A DNA stretch of 64,000 nt from Daejeonella sp. H1SJ63. Its GTDB lineage: Bacteria; Bacteroidota; Bacteroidia; Sphingobacteriales; Sphingobacteriaceae. Under the pieces are notes generated by a model. The model worked only from the letters and a program-made list of their open reading frames with translations. It was not told the DNA's origin and ran no database searches. The stretch's first letter is position 1. Every line of letters begins with the position of its first letter. Both the position numbers and the translations under genes were made by a program. The stretch is from the NCBI RefSeq assembly GCF_029360775.1, contig NZ_JARKMZ010000001.1, positions 1-64,000 of the forward strand, written 5' to 3'. Positions 42,089 to 51,764 of the stretch are shown here, one piece after another.

Positions 42089-42121
42089 AGGCTTTGGGTG
42101 AAAAAGTGGGATTTTTCAGGG

Positions 42122-43983
42122 GTTGTGATTTGCTTTCATTCTTTGAACTACTGATATTTACCACAACAACTTAAAGAGTTGACGCTCCAGCTCATCGTTG
42201 TGATTTGCTTTCATTCTTTGAACTACTGATATTTACCACAACCCTGTAAGTGTAGGTACGTAAGAATTATAGTTGTGATTTGCTTTCATTCTTTGAACTA
42301 CTGATATTTACCACAACTAAAGCGGTCGCTAACATCGGTTATCGTACGTTGTGATTTGCTTTCATTCTTTGAACTACTGATATTTACCACAACGACACGG
42401 TACATGCATAGTACCATGCTTGATGTTGTGATTTGCTTTCATTCTTTGAACTACTGATATTTACCACAACCAATACTTTTTGGATCAGAACTATCTGCAG
42501 TTGTGATTTGCTTTCATTCTTTGAACTACTGATATTTACCACAACTGAGTAAAGTCGATCTGATCGCATTCAAGTGTTGTGATTTGCTTTCATTCTTTGA
42601 ACTACTGATATTTACCACAACGGTTCTCAAATTCTGCCTGACTTAATAAGTGTTGTGATTTGCTTTCATTCTTTGAACTACTGATATTTACCACAACTAT
42701 TACATTCCATACTTTGCCACAAGTACGTTGTGATTTGCTTTCATTCTTTGAACTACTGATATTTACCACAACCAGAATGGCCGTGAGGTAGGCAATAATT
42801 CCGTTGTGATTTGCTTTCATTCTTTGAACTACTGATATTTACCACAACTGATACCCTGATGAAGATGCTTGATTTCCGTTGTGATTTGCTTTCATTCTTT
42901 GAACTACTGATATTTACCACAACGGAGAAAAGAAATATCATAGTGAGAACTGAGTTGTGATTTGCTTTCATTCTTTGAACTACTGATATTTACCACAACG
43001 GTATGCTATTAGTCGTTGAACCTTCTATAGTTGTGATTTGCTTTCATTCTTTGAACTACTGATATTTACCACAACATCAATATTATTTATCCAAAAGTTA
43101 GATAGTTGTGATTTGCTTTCATTCTTTGAACTACTGATATTTACCACAACTTAGAAGTTGAGACAGGTAAGCTAATATTGTTGTGATTTGCTTTCATTCT
43201 TTGAACTACTGATATTTACCACAACTTATATCGGTTTAAGTAAACATCGCCGGTAGTTGTGATTTGCTTTCATTCTTTGAACTACTGATATTTACCACAA
43301 CAATAGTCCAGACCTTTGAGCAAGCTGGATAGTTGTGATTTGCTTTCATTCTTTGAACTACTGATATTTACCACAACTTGAATCGAAGTTTGATGCAATT
43401 GGCAATGGTTGTGATTTGCTTTCATTCTTTGAACTACTGATATTTACCACAACATTAGCATATCTGTTCAGATATATAATTCCGTTGTGATTTGCTTTCA
43501 TTCTTTGAACTACTGATATTTACCACAACTCATAGGCCGTGATTTTGAAATACTCATAGGTTGTGATTTGCTTTCATTCTTTGAACTACTGATATTTACC
43601 ACAACGTCTTGCCAGTTCTCATTACTATCATCCGGGTTGTGATTTGCTTTCATTCTTTGAACTACTGATATTTACCACAACAAAAGATCAAATCAATATA
43701 AAGGAACTAAGTTGTGATTTGCTTTCATTCTTTGAACTACTGATATTTACCACAACTTCCTGAGGGCTTTAACCCGACAGTAGGGGGTTGTGATTTGCTT
43801 TCATTCTTTGAACTACTGATATTTACCACAACACTTTTCAGGAAGGATTGGTACGGCAAATAGTTGTGATTTGCTTTCATTCTTTGAACTACTGATATTT
43901 ACCACAACTTTGCTTTTTTCTGACCATCTGATGCCCTGTTGTGATTTGCTTTCATTCTTTGAACTACTGATATTTACCACAAC
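42122..43983 (+). CRISPR. Type II-C CRISPR array, 25 repeats and 24 spacers
   Basis: The 46-bp repeat begins GTTGTGATTTGCTTTC and ends ATTTACCACAAC. I counted 25 copies that look identical throughout, including both ends. Spacers are 29 bp (nine), 30 bp (fourteen) and 31 bp (one, 42394-42424). The orientation is taken as plus because the tracrRNA anti-repeat at 51704 pairs with the plus-strand repeat. The repeat start is like the Bacteroides fragilis II-C repeat from memory. The minus-strand ORFs that run through the array are repeat artefacts. Confidence 0.98.
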
Positions 43984-44039
43984 ATACCATGGTTCAAAAT
44001 ATTCATTATCAGCAATTTAGTTCGAAAATTAGAATTAAA

Positions 44040-44073: not shown

Positions 44074-44406
<333 letters not shown>

Positions 44407-45441
44407 TCAAAAGGGTAATGCGTCATCATGGTTTGTACTGTTCTTATATTCCATCGGTTCATCGGCTGCTCTCGCTTCAAACTCGTCAGTCGAATCATCG
44501 TAAATAGCTTTAAGCCTGGGGTTAAATCGCTTTATGGCCGGATAGTTAATTCTTCGCAAGGTTCCTTCATAACATTTAGCAAGGGAAGAGGTAGTGCTCT
44601 GTAATCCAACCATTAAGGGGCTTGTCCCTTTTTCAAATTGTACATCAACTGTGGCAATACCTAAAAGCTGTGCTTTGATGGAAGTACCCAGCTCCAGAAA
44701 GTTTTCGCCCTTATCAATGATCTTTAAAACGATGCGGTCAACATAAGGGCGATAGGGCTCCATGATATCGTCGGCCAGACAGTAGGCATTGTATTTATTC
44801 CGGTGGTGAATTCCAAGTGTTGGTAATAAACCCGAACAGACCAGTCCGCGGGCAACAATCGCCCTCAGAATGGCATAACCGTAATTCAAGAGATTATTAG
44901 GCGGATCGCCTTCGTGCCCTCTGAAGAATTCTATTTTCTTAGGGAAAACATTTTTCCAGTAATAGGCTGCTGCACGTCCTTCATAATTGTCCGGATCGCC
45001 CGAGCGTACCGACCGCGCCCAGTACAGCATATTTTCATGTTCAATATCCCGCTCCGCAAGTACTGCAGCCTGATTCATGATCTTGGCCTGAACGGTTTGC
45101 TGCCAGAGTTGCTTTTTTAAAGGTTGTGAAGCATCAATCTGATAACGGAAACGCTCACTTTGTACATCATGCCCATCAATTGGTAACATCATGCCGGTAG
45201 GGTGGTGGGTATGGTTACAGGTAATAATCGCGGCATTATTTTCCAGAAGTGCCGCCATACAGCCATGGGTAATGGTAATCTGTTTATGGTCTAATAATAC
45301 AATTCCAATATCTTCGATCGGGACTGATTTTTTCGACTCTTTTTCTCCTAATTCCTTTAGATGAGGGAGATCAATGAGCAGCTGATCCTGCTGCAGACTG
45401 AGGTAGGCCGGATTGCCAAAATGGAGTGTGCGCTTAATCAT
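44407..45441 (-). CDS. cas1: CRISPR-associated endonuclease Cas1, type II
   Basis: A 344-residue integrase for spacer acquisition. The active-site residues are visible: Glu in YEGRAAAYYW, His in LPTLGIHHRNKYNAYCLADD and the Glu/Asp in DDIMEPYRPYVD. The N-terminal beta domain is normal (MIKRTLHFGNPAYLSLQQDQLLIDL). About 40 C-terminal residues after IKRFNPRLKAI form an acidic tail (DDSTDEFEARAADEPMEYKNSTNHDDALPF), longer than many type II Cas1 proteins. It is separated from cas9 by the ATPase insertion, so it may need its own promoter. Confidence 0.97.
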   Translation of the reverse strand: MIKRTLHFGNPAYLSLQQDQLLIDLPHLKELGEKESKKSVPIEDIGIVLLDHKQITITHGCMAALLENNAAIITCNHTHHPTGMMLPIDGHDVQSERFRYQIDASQPLKKQLWQQTVQAKIMNQAAVLAERDIEHENMLYWARSVRSGDPDNYEGRAAAYYWKNVFPKKIEFFRGHEGDPPNNLLNYGYAILRAIVARGLVCSGLLPTLGIHHRNKYNAYCLADDIMEPYRPYVDRIVLKIIDKGENFLELGTSIKAQLLGIATVDVQFEKGTSPLMVGLQSTTSSLAKCYEGTLRRINYPAIKRFNPRLKAIYDDSTDEFEARAADEPMEYKNSTNHDDALPF

Positions 45442-45823
45442 AAGACGTAGAGCAAAGTGATTTTGTGATCCAATATACGAATCGATGCTTATAAATTAAG
45501 CTGTAATTTAATATAATATATTGTTTTACAGATGATTATAGGTTGAAATTAATGTATTGTTTAATTCCTTGCAATTAATAGATGCCTGCCGGATGCTGAT
45601 TATGTTTACCGCTGCATTTTCAGGATTTAAATAAATTTCCGGGCACTCTTTTAAATTCCATCATAGTCTTATAATGTTGTATCCGATAGTATTTATCCGG
45701 GAATAGTTAGCTTTTAGTTTGCTAATCTTAATTAAGTTTGGATGATAGCGTTTTTAATCCTCCGCCGGTATGGGTAAATGGAATAGGTCAATGATCTCTT
45801 AATAGTATCAGGTTTGATAATAA
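45442..45823. other. Gene-free AT-rich gap upstream of cas1
   Basis: About 380 bp with no ORF of note and no repeat. A TATATTGG at about 45468-45475 on the minus strand is a weak -7-like box for cas1 (one mismatch). It ends at the left palindrome of the ATPase cassette. Confidence 0.45.
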
Positions 45824-45860
45824 CGAGTAAATTCAAAATATAATATTGAATTTACTCGGT
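45824..45860. repeat. Left palindrome of the ATPase cassette
   Basis: Arms CGAGTAAATTCAA (45824-45836) and TTGAATTTACTCG (45846-45858) are perfect over 13 bp around a 9-nt centre. The 37 bp differ from the right copy at only two bases. Its last base is the first base of the ATPase stop codon. Confidence 0.93.
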
Positions 45861-47029
45861 CAGATTTTTCCTAAAAGGTTTTCTAAAACGTTGAGAAGCG
45901 GGGTGTAAATAATACCCTCTCTTCCGGCATAAGGTTCTTCTCCTGAGTAAATAATCCAGTTTTGAGTAGTTTGAAGATCTTTAATGCACTGATAAAATCC
46001 TGCTTTAACTACCGGAGCTTTACTATATTTTATTTCTATACACACCACCGGTTTCATTCCTTTTACCAGAATAAGATCAGCCTCGGCACCATGTTGGGTG
46101 CGATAATAAAATGGCCTGATGGTAGCAGGTAAATGACGTATGATTTCTTCTATGACATAACCCTCCCAGCTGCCGCCAACTACAATGTTTCCGGGAAGTT
46201 CCTGTGCAGCAGGTATACCGCATAGCGAATGCACAATGCCGCTATCGCGAACATAAACTTTCGGCGATTTAATAATGCGCTTGTTTACATTCGCAAACCA
46301 GGGCTGAAGCCGGCGTATCAGAAACGCGCCTTCCATATAATCAAGGTAACGCTTTACACTGGGGCCGCTAATGCCTAATGCCCGTGCATAATTTTCAATA
46401 TTCAGTATGTTACCGGTGCCATTGGCCAGCATTTCCCAGAAATTTCGGATAATCACTGCAGACAGATTAACACCAAACATCATGGAAAGGTCGCGCTCTA
46501 CATAGCTTCGGATAAAACTATCAGCCCATCGGTGAAAAGCAGGATCATCTTTTGCCGTCAGTGCCGGAGGATATCCGCCCCTGAACCAATGGCGCTGCAT
46601 TCCGTAGCGGCTGCTTTTAGCTTCACTGAGATTGATCGGACTGAGTTCTACATAGGCAATACGACCCGCCAGACTTTCACTGACACCTTTTACCAGATCC
46701 GGGCTGGCAGAACCGGTTAGCAGGAAACGGCCTGGTTTACGTAATTCGTCAATTTCAGGACGAAGGGCAGCAAACAGTTGAGGCATTAGCTGCACTTCAT
46801 CCAGCAGTATGACTTTGTTGCGGTTGCTTTCAAAGAAAATTTCAGGATCGGCCAGTTTACGCTGATCAGAGATGCGCTCCAGATCAATGTAAACCACATC
46901 TTTCTTCAGTTTGCGGGCTATACTTTTAGCCAGGGTAGTTTTGCCCACTTGCCGCGGTCCGAGGATTGCCACAGCGGGAAACTCCCGAAGCAGTACATCA
47001 ATTTTTTGTAGGGCATCTCTACGTATCAT
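45860..47029 (-). CDS. DUF4143-type AAA ATPase inserted between cas9 and cas1
   Basis: I chose ATG 47029 (MIRRDALQKIDVLLREFPAVAILGPRQVGKTTLAK), giving 389 aa; a longer TTG frame starts inside the palindrome. Walker A is GPRQVGKT (residues 24-31), Walker B is VILLDEVQ (~75) and sensor LLTGSAS. The C-terminal DUF4143 part ends in GAEADLILVKGMKPVVCIEIKYSKAP, where the Asp and ExK pattern resembles a PD-(D/E)xK nuclease core. Relatives are common orphan ATPases in Bacteroidota and archaea, with unclear function. It is not a known cas gene. Confidence 0.88.
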   Translation of the reverse strand: MIRRDALQKIDVLLREFPAVAILGPRQVGKTTLAKSIARKLKKDVVYIDLERISDQRKLADPEIFFESNRNKVILLDEVQLMPQLFAALRPEIDELRKPGRFLLTGSASPDLVKGVSESLAGRIAYVELSPINLSEAKSSRYGMQRHWFRGGYPPALTAKDDPAFHRWADSFIRSYVERDLSMMFGVNLSAVIIRNFWEMLANGTGNILNIENYARALGISGPSVKRYLDYMEGAFLIRRLQPWFANVNKRIIKSPKVYVRDSGIVHSLCGIPAAQELPGNIVVGGSWEGYVIEEIIRHLPATIRPFYYRTQHGAEADLILVKGMKPVVCIEIKYSKAPVVKAGFYQCIKDLQTTQNWIIYSGEEPYAGREGIIYTPLLNVLENLLGKI

Positions 47030-47050
47030 GATGCAAATGTAGAAAATTAA

Positions 47051-47089
47051 ACCGAGTAAATTCAAAATTTAATTTTGAATTTACTCGGT
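47051..47089. repeat. Right palindrome of the ATPase cassette
   Basis: A perfect 39-bp palindrome with 19-bp arms, ACCGAGTAAATTCAAAATT and its complement around one T, 21 bp upstream of the ATPase ATG. It could be an operator or a mobility end. Confidence 0.95.
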
Positions 47090-47119: not shown

Positions 47120-47317
47120 TCATTGATTGACATTTGCCGGATGTGTAAAATCGACTTCCGGGATACTTTCCCTGATTTTCTTAAAATCATAATGTACCAA
47201 TCCCCGGATATAATTGTCGTATATTTTTACAGATTGCGTACTGATTAATGGATTTAGTGGTAAGATCAGATCGCTTGTGCCTAAACCTAAAGATCTGATA
47301 AAATCGGGACGGTTCAT
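47120..47317 (-). pseudogene. Truncated HIRAN-domain-like gene next to cas9
   Basis: A 65-residue ORF starts 18 bp after the cas9 stop. Residues ~28-55 (QSVKIYDNYIRGLVHYDFKKIRESIPE) resemble the start of HIRAN domains, which usually go on with a G-D-x-L-x-L-x-R-E-P-x-N pattern. Here the sequence instead turns to VDFTHPANVNQ and stops, 30 bp short of the right palindrome. I find no continuation in other frames. It is probably the remnant of a longer gene, though a small working ORF cannot be excluded. Confidence 0.55.
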
Positions 47318-47335: not shown

Positions 47336-50300
47336 TTATAAAGTTTGTTTTAACCACTCTATTGTTCCGTCCATTTTTATTTCAAAATCGTAGCCCTCAA
47401 CTAAGAAATCGTACTTAGCATAGCCAAAGCGAAGAGTTGGTTTTGGATTTTCAAAGTTAATTTCAGATTCCACGTAACTTTCTTCTATTTTGCTCCTTGC
47501 CTCCAAATGGTAGTTGAAATTTAATCGTGCTGAAGGTCCATTCTTCTCAAACGAAGTATAAACATATAACCGTTTTAAAATTTCATTCTGAGACAGCACT
47601 TTAATTTCTTCATTTGATTCCTTTTTAAAGATAACTTTTAATCCAGGCTCTAGAACAAAAGAAAGTGGGTATTCTACCGATAATTTGCTCTTGGTAATAA
47701 CTTTTGACGGTTCAAAAAGTTCCAACGGCTTCTTTATTTTATTTGCAGAAAGTACTTTTGCAGTATCGTATAAATTCCTGAAAGCAAACGCCTTCTTTCC
47801 TTCTTTTGAATAGATAGCAAAAAAGCTATTGGTGGCATTCGCTGCCCAATAACTTTGCTTGTATTCTTTATCAGAAAGATTGCTTTGTTTTTTAATTGCC
47901 AACGGCTCTGAAACACTTGCCCAGACGCGAATATGGCGTATTTTATTCCCATGCGGTTTGCCATATTTGTCCAACAAATAAATTCCTTCTTCAAATGCTT
48001 TTTTGAAACTTCCTACTCTTTGAACGTATTCTTTTATCTGCTTTCTGAGCCCTTCATCAACAATCTTATCAACGTTGGCGAAATCAGCATTAAATGGAAC
48101 TCTAAGTACATATTTTATTTTTTCTTCCTGCACAAATTTTCCGTTTTCATCTTTCAATAAATTTCCGTTTTCACCTTTTTTTGCAGGTTTAATGGCTCCG
48201 TAAAAAGTTTCTTGATGTAATTGGCCTCTTATACTGTCGCCTGTTGCCCATTTCTGAGCTTTTGTTCCATCTGGGTTTTCAATAAATACTTCTTTACCAC
48301 GTTTGCGGACTTTTCGTTTAGCTGGCGTGAGTTCTTGGTTATTTGTAATGTTGTTAATTAAAATACTGTCGTCAATACTCCACACAAATTCACGTTTAAA
48401 TCCTGCAAAAGGAGGTTCAGCATTAAATGCAGTTTTGTTTTCTTTTGCCTCGTAATATTTTTCGAGAATGGAATCACGTTTTGCAGCTACAGGGATAAGT
48501 GTCAATACAGCTGCGTCTTTAGCGTGGTGCGAGTGTTTACTTCTGTCTTTCTTTTCATCGACAATCTGTAATTGATATATTTTTCTGAACTCAGCTGTAA
48601 TGCTTCCTTTCTGCACATCGACTTTGTCAAAATATGTTTTTAAATAATGAAACGCATATTTAGAAATCAATTGTGTATCTACTTTTTGGCTATTTTTAAA
48701 ACCGCTTGTGATTTCTGTAATGGTAAATCTGTCTAACTTGTTTTGCCAATAATCCAATTCCATTTGCCACAAGTGACGCTGACGGATAGCATCATCTTTC
48801 CACTGCTTATCAGATGCTTTTTTTGATTTTGTTTTCCAAAAATCAATTTGTTGTTTTATTCTCTCTACCTTATCTTCCCATGTTATTAATCTTTGTTTAA
48901 TAGGTCCACACTTCCCTAGACTTCCACCGAAATCGTATTCTTTATCATAATTAGGAAGCTTCGTTGGAATTTGGTTTTTTTTGATAGTGCGGTTGTAATC
49001 ATGATAACAGACAGTAAGGTTTGCCAATGAATTATCAAATGATTTACTTCTTGGAACGGTATGTTCAAAATCAATTACATTTTCATTAAACAAATCGTTT
49101 AGTTTAATAAGTTTACCCGTGTACAAGCATTGATACCCCTGTTCTCTCCACAAGCGATATTTGTCTATGAGTTTTTTACCGTGTCCGCCCCATCTTACAG
49201 CTTCATCTTTTTCGACTGAATTTTTCTTTTTACCTTTTACTTCTTCTTCAGCTTCTACAAATGACGGAAGTGTTTGTTCCATATTTTGTTCGTAGAACAG
49301 ACGTATCTTATCAATATCGTCGCCACTTTCGGCATTGGCTTTAACGTTCTTATCTGCATTTAATAGCTGTTTAATTGCTTCTTCAAATTCCTGATTTTCG
49401 GATTCTCGTTGCCTTTGCCATGCTTCAATCGCCCAACGTTTGTTTGAATCATTCAAGTCCCGTGCTACTTCAACAACAATCCTTGTTTCGTTATCTATCT
49501 GATCGGTTTCAATCATATAGTTCATCAGATTGCGTAGCTCGTGCATTGTACGCATGGCCATTGGATTTTTGAAAGAGCCTGTTTTTGGACTTCCCAACTT
49601 CAAGGTGCCGTCTTTATCCGGTTTTGCTGGTGGATAAATATTGATTTCTGACGGATGATATATTTTTTGAAGTTGCTTATCGTCCACCTCGAAATTTAGT
49701 AGTAAGAATTCAACTAAGGTGTTAATCAACTTTGGCGAACGGTAATAACCAGACTCCGTTTTGTAATAATTTTTACCGTTTGACTGTACGATCACTATTC
49801 TTTCCTGATTCCCATTGTCTCTAATTATACCGTTTCTAGAAAAATAGGCTTGATAACAGTCTTTTACAGTGTCAAAAACTTCCCTTTTGGTCTCATCAGA
49901 AAAATCATCCCATCTGTTTGTGCTGAATTGTTCTTCAATGGCAGTTTGAATAGCTTCTAAATCACTTTTAACTAATTTATAACTGTTGTCCTTGTATCCG
50001 AATTTTTCGTTGGCTTCCAGATTTTTATGTTTGGAAATAAGATTATTTACGATGTTCAATATTGATTTTTGTAGACGGTTTTCTGCAATCACATTGCCGA
50101 TGTTATCCAACAATAATTTTTCATTCTGTAGCCATAAATCCTTACCAATAACTTCAGGAATGTTTGCCAATAAGACCGCTTCGGTGTAAATTAATCCCTT
50201 TTGTAAAAACACATTGATTTTGGTTATGGCATTCAAACTCAACATCCCATAACCCACAGGCAAGGCATTCCACGCGATAATAAACTGCTTTACTTTTTCG

Positions 50301-51664
50301 GGTTCAAGTTTTAGCTTTTGTTCGGCAAACTCAGCAACACATTCCTGATCTTCGTAATTGAATAAAATATGCCATATATCTTCAATATCATAAAATGCTT
50401 TATCCGATTTTGGCGCTTTTGTTTTTATGATTTTAACATTCAAATAATGATCACCAAAAATATCTTTAAGTCTTGCAGAAACAGGGCAGCCGGTTACGGT
50501 CGTTTTGGGTTTGTAATTCAGTTCCCAGTTTTTACCCTTTTTCTTTAGGAAAGTAATTATTTCAGAAAATGGGAAGTATGATTTTGATTTTCTGAAAAAT
50601 AATTCTGAAAAAATCTCTTGTTTCAAATCAAGTGGGAATTGTTTCCAATCATTATTTTCTTTGTATTTGACGTTATTTAAAAATGACCATGCTCGAAATG
50701 TTTCAAACGCAGGATGATTTATAGGTACACGATATTTATTCGGCTCCAAAGTACATTTCCCTACTAATCCTTTTTGAGAACGTAAGGGACGTTTGTAAAA
50801 GATTGTTCCGCCAATACAGTTTTTATTTTTGTTATCCTTAAAGCTTATACAAGTAGAAACATAAACAGGATGTTTAAGTCCTAACCCTTGAAATTGAAAA
50901 ATGAATTTGATTTCGTCTTTGTAATTTTCACGAATTGCGTATTGTGTGATGCTCTCACGAATTCTGATATTATCATTTTCCAACAGTGCGAAAAGCCACC
51001 CAATAGTTTTAGCTTCTGTATATTTTTCAAATAATTCTGCAATGATTTTGTTTTTCTTTTTTTCAGAATATTGCAAATCCATTACTTCATTGTCGTTTGT
51101 TTCTTTGTCTTTGGTATCATCTGCTCCTTTACGACTACTTTTGAAACCTCTGCGTTGAGCAATGTGATAAAAGGCTCTGCCTAATTTGAAACGGTTGATT
51201 TCCTGAGAAAAGTCCAATTTGTCTTCGGCTAATTCTTTTCTCAATTGGTATGGGCTTGCATAATCTGGCTTTCCGTCATTATCGAAATCCAACTTTATCC
51301 ATGCATCAAATGCAATATTCCCAATAGGGTAAACCCGTCCTGCATTATTGTTTTTATGAGCTTCTTCTTTATTGTAGCGTCGCCATATGTTTAAATCTTT
51401 CATAGACAACGGGCAATAACCTTCGGCTATCAAATGTTCAAGTGTAGCCCATAGTCTGTATTTTCGGGCTTGATACAACCGTCTTGTAGAACGTTTTTTT
51501 GTACGTTCTGCAGCATAGGAGTATTCGCCGGTTTTTCCGATACCAATACCTTTATTAAAAGTCAATACACCAAATTTTTCAATTTGATTTCCTGTTAAAT
51601 CGGGATTACGTAATGCCCACCCAATAGAGTTAGTTCCCAAATCAATTCCAAAAATTTTGCTCAT
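47336..51664 (-). CDS. cas9: CRISPR-associated endonuclease Cas9, type II-C, 1442 aa
   Basis: I chose ATG 51664 (MSKIFGIDLGTNSIGWALRN); the longer frame to 51712 runs into the tracrRNA anti-repeat. RuvC-I holds Asp8; the arginine-rich bridge helix is AAERTKKRSTRRLYQARKYR at residues ~50-70. RuvC-II has Glu732 (IVVEVARDLN). The HNH domain has CLYTGKLI, FEHTVPRS with His868 and NLTVCYHDYNR. RuvC-III has His1046/1047 and Asp1050 in HHAKDAAV. All catalytic residues are present, so the enzyme should cut both strands. No csn2 or cas4 is present, which fits subtype II-C. Its PAM is unknown. Confidence 0.98.
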   Translation of the reverse strand: MSKIFGIDLGTNSIGWALRNPDLTGNQIEKFGVLTFNKGIGIGKTGEYSYAAERTKKRSTRRLYQARKYRLWATLEHLIAEGYCPLSMKDLNIWRRYNKEEAHKNNNAGRVYPIGNIAFDAWIKLDFDNDGKPDYASPYQLRKELAEDKLDFSQEINRFKLGRAFYHIAQRRGFKSSRKGADDTKDKETNDNEVMDLQYSEKKKNKIIAELFEKYTEAKTIGWLFALLENDNIRIRESITQYAIRENYKDEIKFIFQFQGLGLKHPVYVSTCISFKDNKNKNCIGGTIFYKRPLRSQKGLVGKCTLEPNKYRVPINHPAFETFRAWSFLNNVKYKENNDWKQFPLDLKQEIFSELFFRKSKSYFPFSEIITFLKKKGKNWELNYKPKTTVTGCPVSARLKDIFGDHYLNVKIIKTKAPKSDKAFYDIEDIWHILFNYEDQECVAEFAEQKLKLEPEKVKQFIIAWNALPVGYGMLSLNAITKINVFLQKGLIYTEAVLLANIPEVIGKDLWLQNEKLLLDNIGNVIAENRLQKSILNIVNNLISKHKNLEANEKFGYKDNSYKLVKSDLEAIQTAIEEQFSTNRWDDFSDETKREVFDTVKDCYQAYFSRNGIIRDNGNQERIVIVQSNGKNYYKTESGYYRSPKLINTLVEFLLLNFEVDDKQLQKIYHPSEINIYPPAKPDKDGTLKLGSPKTGSFKNPMAMRTMHELRNLMNYMIETDQIDNETRIVVEVARDLNDSNKRWAIEAWQRQRESENQEFEEAIKQLLNADKNVKANAESGDDIDKIRLFYEQNMEQTLPSFVEAEEEVKGKKKNSVEKDEAVRWGGHGKKLIDKYRLWREQGYQCLYTGKLIKLNDLFNENVIDFEHTVPRSKSFDNSLANLTVCYHDYNRTIKKNQIPTKLPNYDKEYDFGGSLGKCGPIKQRLITWEDKVERIKQQIDFWKTKSKKASDKQWKDDAIRQRHLWQMELDYWQNKLDRFTITEITSGFKNSQKVDTQLISKYAFHYLKTYFDKVDVQKGSITAEFRKIYQLQIVDEKKDRSKHSHHAKDAAVLTLIPVAAKRDSILEKYYEAKENKTAFNAEPPFAGFKREFVWSIDDSILINNITNNQELTPAKRKVRKRGKEVFIENPDGTKAQKWATGDSIRGQLHQETFYGAIKPAKKGENGNLLKDENGKFVQEEKIKYVLRVPFNADFANVDKIVDEGLRKQIKEYVQRVGSFKKAFEEGIYLLDKYGKPHGNKIRHIRVWASVSEPLAIKKQSNLSDKEYKQSYWAANATNSFFAIYSKEGKKAFAFRNLYDTAKVLSANKIKKPLELFEPSKVITKSKLSVEYPLSFVLEPGLKVIFKKESNEEIKVLSQNEILKRLYVYTSFEKNGPSARLNFNYHLEARSKIEESYVESEINFENPKPTLRFGYAKYDFLVEGYDFEIKMDGTIEWLKQTL

Positions 51665-51694
51665 AATATTAGGGTATTGGTTAATTATTCTTAG

Positions 51695-51764
51695 CTTAGT
51701 TTTGCAAATCACAATAAGGCTATAAGCCGAAGATTTTCTTAGCCCTGCTTCGGTGGGGCTTTTT
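51695..51764 (+). ncRNA. tracrRNA, divergent from cas9
   Basis: GCAAATCACAA at 51704-51714 is an exact 11-nt anti-repeat to the start of the CRISPR repeat. It is followed by TAAGG, a small GGCT-ATA-AGCC hairpin (51718-51728) like the II-C nexus, and a terminator hairpin (51741-51760) whose AGCCC/GGGCT stem is closed by a C(TTCG)G tetraloop before TTTTT. The 5' end is not known. The RNA must start in or near the cas9 5' end to include the anti-repeat. A TAGTTTTG box at 51697-51704 would start transcription too late. Confidence 0.88.
51741..51764 (+). terminator. tracrRNA terminator
   Basis: AGCCCTGC and GTGGGGCT form an 8-bp stem (with two wobbles) on a TTCG loop, followed by TTTT. It is the third stem of the tracrRNA. 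Confidence 0.85.

What the first reader, a model, noticed from the sequence alone, without database searches (positions are those of the whole stretch)
45824..47089. ATPase cassette with near-identical 37-bp palindromes at both ends inside the cas operon
The DUF4143 ATPase gene between cas9 and cas1 is bounded by two palindromes that share 35 of 37 bp, one overlapping its stop codon and the other 21 bp before its start. The two repeats differ by two central bases. This looks like a discrete mobile or self-regulated unit placed in a CRISPR-Cas operon. The C-terminal Asp...ExK pattern hints at a nuclease fold, so a role with Cas1-Cas2 or in cassette movement is possible. I know of no described system of this shape.
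Basis: partly seen in the sequence, partly recalled or inferred. Interest (0 to 1): 0.75.

Follow-up and report, generated by a model that had tools for sequence, protein, structure and literature searches.

The report
Nuclease-ATPase gene with private palindromes
A gene inside a CRISPR operon encodes a predicted ATP-driven DNA-cutting protein that carries its own 37-letter mirror-image DNA sign just before (and here also just after) it; many relatives carry their own versions of that sign, and in some species the gene has vanished while the sign stayed behind.

Summary
A 389-aa ATPase (AAA_14+DUF4143) between cas9 and cas1 is flanked by two near-identical 37-bp palindromes found nowhere else in the genome. 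It belongs to a widespread family (PADLOC candidate PDC-S01). In 77 of 121 family loci an inverted repeat stands just upstream of the start codon (background windows 1.3-1.6%); it has a common 37-bp plan, its sequence diverges with the protein, and it often precedes a TAnnTTTG promoter box 3-5 nt from the ATG. Most likely it is a DNA operator read by the protein, a predicted STAND NTPase with a PD-(D/E)XK nuclease domain. A copy at the stop codon recurs in 9 of 121. At one Pedobacter site 17 loci carry the gene, 4 a divergent relative, 11 only the palindrome, 19 neither; in 7 loci the gene is missing from palindrome edge to stop codon. A CRISPR role is not supported: 4 of 112 relatives lie within 5 kb of cas1, and 0 of 80 in a wider set had Cas1 or Cas9 in the held flank. 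Best reading: an autoregulated accessory, probably defence, gene lodged in a cas9-cas1 hotspot. Binding, cutting and active excision are untested.

The parts
47051..47089 (.). upstream palindrome (perfect dyad), probable operator/binding site
   Evidence: family-wide position
47034..47041 (-). TACATTTG, fits the Bacteroidota -7 promoter box TAnnTTTG (consensus recalled), ends 4 nt before the ATG; transcript probably leaderless or nearly so (inferred)
   Evidence: sequence; enrichment 37 of 80 palindrome loci vs 29 of 882 other ORFs
45860..47029 (-). ATPase gene, 389 aa: AAA_14 (residues 18-136), DUF4143 (178-336), winged-helix-like region, PD-(D/E)XK-like C-terminus (E289, D318, E332-x-K334)
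45823..45859 (.). second copy of the palindrome at the stop codon, one mismatch
47120..47317 (-). 65-codon ORF, N-terminal fragment of a HIRAN-domain gene that is intact in the cas9-cas1 gap of some relatives
47336..51712 (-). cas9, 1458 aa
   Evidence: similar cas9-cas1-cas2 loci
44407..45441 (-). cas1
44074..44403 (-). cas2
42115..43987 (.). CRISPR array, 46-bp repeat

Best explanation
It is a member of the DUF4143 ATPase family (PADLOC candidate PDC-S01): a STAND-type NTPase joined to a PD-(D/E)XK nuclease domain, probably a single-gene defence or selfish effector. Each gene has its own 37-bp dyad over the -33 region of a near-leaderless promoter. The protein most likely binds this dyad as an oligomer, perhaps through its winged-helix region, and represses its own promoter. 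In the window a second copy at the stop codon could let the protein loop the gene. The palindrome-gene unit is inherited, replaced and lost at fixed hotspots; the cas9-cas1 junction is one. Shown by sequence: the dyad, its position, its divergence along with the protein, the recurring second copy, and gene loss with the dyad left behind. Inferred: binding, repression, looping, nuclease activity, the defence role, and the way the ORF is lost.
For: Inverted repeat of score >=10 within 150 bp upstream in 34 of 40 relatives vs 1.6% of 2989 background windows and 0.6% of 800 mononucleotide shuffles, and in 42 of 80 further relatives (the best 80 of at least 566) vs 1.3% of 6992 windows. Common half-site, and palindrome identity tracks protein identity for pairs under 70% (Mantel rho 0.50, largest of 300 permutations 0.24; 78 loci). 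TAnnTTTG within 22 nt of the ATG in 37 of 80 palindrome loci vs 29 of 882 other ORFs; 35 of the 42 boxes found lie 3-5 nt from the ATG; so the dyad lies upstream of the likely transcript and should act as DNA. STAND fold for residues 1-271 (2qen Z 17.0, rmsd 2.9, 248 aligned). C-terminus: McrC 6hz4 Z 8.9 (rmsd 4.0, 119 aligned), Can2 8q42 Z 8.1, with E316, D318, E332 and K334 invariant in 15 sequences. PDC-S01 E 2.7e-90. After gene loss dyads carry more mismatched pairs (1 of 10 perfect vs 10 of 15 with the gene, L203 and L177 left out; p 0.009 on all rows), as expected of an operator whose protein is gone.
Against: No binding, expression or phage data. 44 of 121 loci had no dyad at this threshold; a few subtypes have 22-23-bp direct repeats instead, most others showed neither. 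The loci are not independent (close relatives within the sets). At the Pedobacter site changes in dyad pairs do not favour symmetry: occupied 8 two-sided complementary against 10 broken, lone 3 against 27 (L203 mis-centred there). In STAND proteins the winged helix often does not bind DNA (recalled). A simple operator does not explain the copy at the stop codon (9 of 121) nor why the lost ORF ends so exactly at palindrome edge and stop codon. STAND and nuclease assignments rest on predicted models; for the C-terminus Z 8-9 is modest and Foldseek gave no match at E <= 0.001.
Confidence: 0.6

Rival explanations
1. The unit is a minimal mobile or excisable cassette: the protein cuts at, or uses, the palindromes at both ends to enter and leave; a lone palindrome is the scar or the attachment site.
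For: Copy at both ends, flush with the ORF, in 9 of 121 loci. In 7 of 9 dyad-bearing pairs with unrelated upstream flanks the homologous block starts within 4 bp of the dyad's outer edge and ends 5-18 nt before the end of the stop codon. At the Pedobacter site 7 loci, in up to five lineages, have the palindrome 8-10 nt from the downstream terminator stem with the ORF gone; the lone state needs at least 9 changes on the tree. A divergent relative occupies the same site in 4 loci.
Against: The block edge is weak evidence: in L106/L112 and L112/L113, whose upstream flanks are homologous, the block also starts 2-7 bp outside the dyad, so it may only reflect fast change of intergenic DNA. The palindrome is single-copy in each of the 20 Pedobacter genomes that have it and in the own genome lies only at the two ends. 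Among the 46 closest of the pairs compared no pair is from one genome. In Pedobacter the ATPase follows the flanking gene (rho 0.71, permutation maximum 0.61, 14 loci), i.e. mostly descent with losses. No target-site duplication seen by eye in window, L077, L081. Recombination between repeats by host enzymes, or step-wise erosion (L191 and L181 look like intermediates), could give the same junctions.
Confidence: 0.18
2. The ATPase is an accessory of CRISPR adaptation working with Cas1-Cas2 (or Cas4).
For: Found at the effector/adaptation junction of II-C loci in two families (window; G095) and next to a cas4-like gene and Cas1 in two congeneric genomes (G073, G062; the other cas genes there named by eye). 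4 pairs within 5 kb of Cas1 vs 0.165 expected; without the window P(>=3) 6e-4, or P(>=2) 0.012 if G073 and G062 count once. G061 has one about 9 kb from a Cas1. A Thermus gene of this domain make-up downstream of a CRISPR locus rose 6.6-fold with plasmid in an Ago-bearing strain (PMC4406477, section 7 read).
Against: 108 of 112 places are not within 5 kb of a Cas1. 0 of 80 wider relatives had Cas1, Cas2, Cas3, Cas7 or Cas9 hits in up to 10 kb of flank (many contigs shorter); one had a cas4-like hit. 20 of the 49 Cas1 places were fetched as further loci and none has this ATPase; other genes (HIRAN, PemK, Fic) stand in some gaps. G006 keeps gene and dyad without a Cas1 match.
Confidence: 0.07
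3. The palindromes are ordinary terminators or chance A+T-rich inverted repeats.
For: The downstream copy lies at a stop codon, and some downstream hairpins of relatives look like terminators (L078, L079).
Against: The usual copy is upstream of a promoter box, has no T-run, has a common 37-bp plan and is about 40-50 times commoner than in background windows.
Confidence: 0.04
4. Addiction: the dyad is a restraining site for a harmful nuclease, so genomes that lose the gene keep the site.
For: 11 lone palindromes at the Pedobacter site; in the 8 of these 11 genomes that were searched no ATPase above 43% identity to the L080 type.
Against: Lone dyads are more decayed than occupied ones; one site per genome seems too few to titrate a protein.
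Confidence: 0.07

Closest known systems
PDC-S01 (PADLOC single-gene phage defence candidate; Pfam AAA_14 + DUF4143)
   Same: Same protein family (7 PDC-S01 models match, best E 2.7e-90); ATPase joined to PD-(D/E)XK as stated in PMC12988326 (passages)
   Different: No palindrome or operator was mentioned in the passages seen; here most close relatives have a dyad of their own and a few subtypes direct repeats
STAND NTPases (archaeal ATPases 2qen and 2fna; Avs5; NLRs)
   Same: Fold over residues 1-271 (Z 17.0 and 16.5; Avs5 and NLR rows Z 12-15)
   Different: No C-terminal sensor repeats; a nuclease-like domain sits there
RAYT/REP systems (recalled)
   Same: Single gene bounded by palindromes
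   Different: No Y1 transposase domain; palindrome not spread through the genome
Self-regulating restriction control genes (recalled)
   Same: A dyad at a near-leaderless promoter
   Different: Here the presumed regulator is the ATPase-nuclease itself

Membership tests
PDC-S01 / DUF4143 ATPases | Match to family models over most of the protein | tested here: met
PDC-S01 / DUF4143 ATPases | Anti-phage activity | not testable with these tools
   validation pending for most PDCs according to PMC12988326
STAND NTPase | P-loop NTPase with helical and winged-helix domains | tested here: met
   predicted model, pLDDT 92.8; Z 17.0 to 2qen, 248 aligned
PD-(D/E)XK nuclease | Core fold | tested here: met
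   predicted domain; Z 8.9 McrC, 8.1 Can2, 6.8 Hjc among mostly nuclease rows, top row 2czr Z 9.3 is a TBP-interacting protein; Foldseek best E 3.9e-3; same assignment in PMC12988326
PD-(D/E)XK nuclease | Conserved acidic residues and lysine | tested here: met
   E316, D318, E332, K334 invariant in 15; E316 and E332 invariant, D318 and K334 at 90% or more in 52
PD-(D/E)XK nuclease | DNA cleavage | not testable with these tools
   needs an assay
Insertion sequence / transposon | Several copies in a genome | tested here: not met
   dyad at one place per genome; no same-genome pair among the 46 closest protein pairs
Insertion sequence / transposon | Target-site duplication | tested here: inconclusive
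   by eye in window, L077, L081 only
CRISPR-Cas accessory gene | Consistent linkage to cas genes | tested here: not met
   4 of 112; 0 of 80 with Cas1 or Cas9

The most novel reading that the evidence does not exclude
DUF4143/PDC-S01 genes are a new kind of minimal genetic unit: a nuclease-ATPase whose own 37-bp dyad is both its operator and its boundary for precise entry and exit, so that genomes pass between palindrome-gene-palindrome, palindrome-gene and lone-palindrome states. One of the commonest 'defence' families would then be a self-delimiting mobile element.
Probability: 0.18. Interest if true: 0.87.

Novelty: new variant of a known kind. Interest (0 to 1): 0.62.

Why it matters
[quoted passage not shown] A private binding site would give the family a testable handle: which DNA each protein reads, how it is kept silent, and whether it is defence or a selfish unit. 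The lone-palindrome sites in Pedobacter are natural before/after pairs for experiments.

Tried and rejected
Rejected: CRISPR-specific function. tracrRNA explanation of the gaps: no convincing anti-repeat by a short blastn. Insertion of the unit having cut the HIRAN gene: the alignable fragment ends 50 bp before the shared unit, and in G019, without the ATPase, the alignment ends at the same point, so the truncation is no evidence of insertion. A C-terminal half of HIRAN on the cas1 side: no significant hit. Direct repeats as a general substitute for the dyad: 5 of 47 dyad-less loci, 4 of the 5 added because repeats had been seen. Spread by viruses: 31 loci in the viral collection, a lower bound since only two peptide patterns were scanned. 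Whole-model PDB comparison left the C-terminus untested, hence the separate model. PHROGs and NCBIfam gave only generic ATPase or clamp-loader matches; sequence search of the PDB gave P-loop matches and one winged-helix regulator (2fbh, E 0.012).

Literature, full-text searches: DUF4143 (1 paper), COG1373 (7, listing only), AAA_14 (11, none relevant by title), STAND/COG1672/DUF234 and others, PDC-S01 (3), embedding/PDC terms, palindrome + ATPase + DUF4143 and others (0), HIRAN + Cas1, palindrome + operator + defence. No listed title or abstract start told of a palindrome for this family. Read: passages of PMC12988326 and PMC13356809, section 7 of PMC4406477; all others in listings only.

Rows dropped and numbers mended: my notes said 115 relatives; recounting one search gives 112 places including the window's own. 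In the Pedobacter table 19 of 70 loci were left out (L202, L252, L253, L256-L267, L272-L275: contig or locus ends, or uvrB not beside the gene); 19 of the 89 matching genomes were not fetched; 10 of 99 had no match. In the 17 loci with the L080-type gene uvrB was in view in 6; elsewhere the locus ended before it. A lone palindrome counts only if it still scores as one, so more decayed ones fall under 'neither'. In one search L177 (only a terminator in view) and L203 (other spacing) are left out of the perfect/imperfect counts; with them the means are 1.0 (16 occupied) and 2.09 (11 lone) mismatched pairs of 17. Downstream copies (9 of 121) were told from terminators by eye; L069 matches at 78%, L075 shares only the inner part, L083 has no dyad detected upstream. 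I lowered the cassette reading from 0.20 to 0.18 because two pairs with homologous upstream flanks show the same block edge.

Full report
OBSERVATION. The gene at 45860-47029 (minus strand, 389 aa) lies between cas9 and cas1 of a type II-C-like locus. A perfect dyad (47051-47089) ends 21 bp before the ATG; a second copy with one arm mismatch (45823-45859) abuts the stop codon. In the register 45824-45860 / 47053-47089 the copies share 35 of 37 bases. Shuffles of the window give no such match and the genome has no third copy.

PROTEIN. Pfam: AAA_14 and DUF4143. PADLOC: PDC-S01, E 2.7e-90. An AlphaFold2 model from 52 sequences has mean pLDDT 92.8. Residues 1-271 match archaeal ATPases of the STAND kind, 2qen (Z 17.0, rmsd 2.9, 248 aligned) and 2fna (Z 16.5), with NLR and Avs5 rows below. 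The C-terminal 124 residues modelled alone (pLDDT 87.2) give McrC (6hz4, Z 8.9, rmsd 4.0, 119 aligned), Can2 (8q42, Z 8.1) and Hjc (1gef, Z 6.8) among mostly nuclease rows; the top row is a TBP-interacting protein (2czr, Z 9.3), and Foldseek alone was weak (best E 3.9e-3). E316, D318, E332 and K334 are invariant in 15 relatives.

FAMILY-WIDE DYAD. The window protein hits 55 of 150 related genomes at E<=1e-20, 112 places, patchily even in its genus (3 of 20 genomes). In 40 of these places read with wide flanks the best inverted repeat within 150 bp upstream scores >=10 in 34, against 1.6% of 2989 background windows and 0.6% of 800 mononucleotide shuffles; downstream it does so in 6. A second set, the best 80 of at least 566 relatives in named genomes of many phyla, gives 42 of 80 upstream and 9 of 79 downstream, background 1.3% of 6992. 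With the window, 77 of 121. The 37-bp plan is shared, half-site roughly C C n T G n A A A T Y n A A A R T T, and palindrome identity falls with protein identity (Mantel rho 0.50 for pairs under 70%, largest of 300 permutations 0.24, 78 loci). The dyads were picked for symmetry, so symmetry itself is no evidence there; position, common plan and divergence along with the protein are. G000 and G006 upstream dyads differ by one matched change in both arms and one central change.

PROMOTER. TAnnTTTG (the Bacteroidota -7 box, recalled) lies within 22 nt of the ATG in 37 of 80 palindrome loci (the 78 plus L032 and L033) against 29 of 882 other ORFs in the same loci; 35 of the 42 boxes found in all lie 3-5 nt from the ATG. 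In the window it is TACATTTG, 4 nt from the ATG. The dyad therefore lies just upstream of the box, about over the -33 region, outside the likely transcript, and should act as DNA. The best reading is an operator read by the protein itself. No binding datum exists.

SECOND COPY AND UNIT BOUNDARY. A copy of the gene's own dyad at the stop codon was found in the window, L040, L069 (78%) and L070, decayed in L035, and in L075, L077, L081 and L083 (sorted by eye): 9 of 121. Extra upstream copies occur in L039, L045, L050, L059 and L063. Twenty locus pairs were compared for the extent of homology. Of nine pairs with unrelated upstream flanks and a detected dyad, seven have a block that starts within 4 bp of the dyad's outer edge (L106/L101, L106/L103, L105/L113, L101/L113, L105/L112, L064/L067, L064/L065; several share loci) and ends 5-18 nt before the end of the stop codon. 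L071/L072 fits one member's dyad only and L065/L067 does not fit. Window/L035 starts 7 bp outside and runs to 18 nt past the stop. Against this, L106/L112 and L112/L113 have homologous upstream flanks and show the same edge, so the edge may only reflect fast intergenic change.

THE CAS LOCUS. G006, same genus, has a 90%-identical protein and the same dyad at the same syntenic place (P5C dehydrogenase ... lpxK) but no Cas1 match. Its DNA next to the ATPase (antitoxin-PemK) is 89% identical over 832 bp to the cas9-cas1 gap of G019, which has cas genes and no ATPase there. So G006 is probably a remnant of the same CRISPR locus. The window has a HIRAN-gene fragment (47120-47317); the alignable part in G019 ends at the same point. 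Twenty of the 49 Cas1 places were fetched; 19 showed cas9 hits. In them cas9 and cas1 are often adjacent and otherwise separated by assorted genes: HIRAN in 4, PemK, Fic/RhuM, a nucleotidyltransferase (DUF2204, weakly AbiEii-like), and unassigned ORFs. The junction is a hotspot. The ATPase lies at it in the window and G095, and next to a cas4-like gene and Cas1 in G073 and G062. 4 pairs within 5 kb of Cas1 against 0.165 expected is an excess, yet 108 of 112 places, and all 80 of the wider set for Cas1 and Cas9, are elsewhere. A CRISPR function is unlikely.

NATURAL GAIN AND LOSS. In Pedobacter the gene lies between uvrB and a conserved gene. 89 of 99 genomes have that gene; 70 sites were read and 51 kept: 17 carry the L080-type ATPase, 4 a divergent relative (32-37% identical in the three measured; direct repeats upstream), 11 a lone palindrome, 19 neither (one of these, L188, keeps direct repeats). 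On a tree of the flanking gene the four states need 17 changes (shuffled mean 25.5) and the lone state at least 9, being no more clustered than chance (300 of 500 shuffles as low). Each of the 20 of 30 genomes with the L080-type dyad has one, at this site. Of the 11 lone-palindrome genomes 8 were searched, and none has an ATPase above 43% identity to the L080 type. In L185, L186, L196, L198, L200, L236 and L237 (five lineages at most) the dyad lies 8-10 nt from the terminator stem that in occupied relatives follows within a few nt of the stop codon: the ORF is missing from dyad edge to stop codon. L179 keeps 25 nt, L191 has an ORF remnant, L181 a truncated gene; L203, L244 and L247 have other downstream sequence. 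L237 carries the divergent relative beside the lone dyad; L236 keeps both direct repeats and dyad with neither gene.

WHAT THE LOSSES MEAN. ATPase and flanking-gene identities agree (rho 0.71, 14 loci, permutation maximum 0.61), so the lone sites are mostly losses, not pre-insertion sites. Lone dyads are more decayed: 1 of 10 perfect against 10 of 15 with the gene (L203 and L177 left out). In one search pair changes were two-sided and complementary in 8 and broken in 10 cases among 15 occupied dyads, 3 and 27 among 11 lone ones (L203 mis-centred). This fits an operator that lost its protein, and recent losses, which makes a clean junction by slow erosion less likely. Recombination between two dyads, as placed in the window, would give such a junction; whether host enzymes or the protein does this is open.

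VERDICT. The feature is real and general. Its most likely working is an autoregulated STAND-nuclease gene with a private dyad operator, probably a defence or selfish gene, turning over at hotspots. Known: the protein family as PDC-S01, called the fourth most common defence across prokaryotes, validation pending for most such candidates (PMC12988326, passages). Not found in the searches listed: any account of the dyads. One expression hint: TT_P0211 of Thermus (AAA_14, DUF4143) rose 6.6-fold with plasmid in an Ago-bearing strain (PMC4406477, section 7).

Noticed in passing
L002:803-865 (own genome contig C54); L197, L199, L204, L237: Other DUF4143 subtypes have 22-23-bp-period direct repeats (iteron-like) upstream of the start instead of a palindrome (CAAAGTCGGAAGTA in L002, TATGTAAATTCAAAAT in Pedobacter).
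   Followed up: partly
L155-L174, cas9-cas1 gaps: The cas9-cas1 junction of Bacteroidota II-C loci often holds an accessory gene: HIRAN, PemK with antitoxin, Fic/RhuM, a nucleotidyltransferase.
   Followed up: partly
L163, L164, L170, L173, cas9-cas1 gaps: ORFs with motifs that I recall from REP-type (Y1) transposases; no Pfam match for the three scanned, L173 not scanned. Long perfect palindromes lie in these gaps, four near-identical ones in L173.
   Followed up: no
L244 (G158), between uvrB and the conserved gene: A perfect 49-bp lone palindrome of a changed sequence type without ATPase, beside seven tandem copies of a 144-145-bp unit holding a terminator-like hairpin.
   Followed up: no
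L236: Both cis-elements (direct repeats and palindrome) survive with both ATPase genes gone.
   Followed up: partly
G006 contig C3, L035: Probable CRISPR-Cas remnant: antitoxin-PemK-ATPase from a cas9-cas1 gap, no Cas1 match in the genome.
   Followed up: partly
window 45442-45822: About 380 bp between the second palindrome and cas1 without an ORF of note or a convincing tracrRNA anti-repeat.
   Followed up: partly
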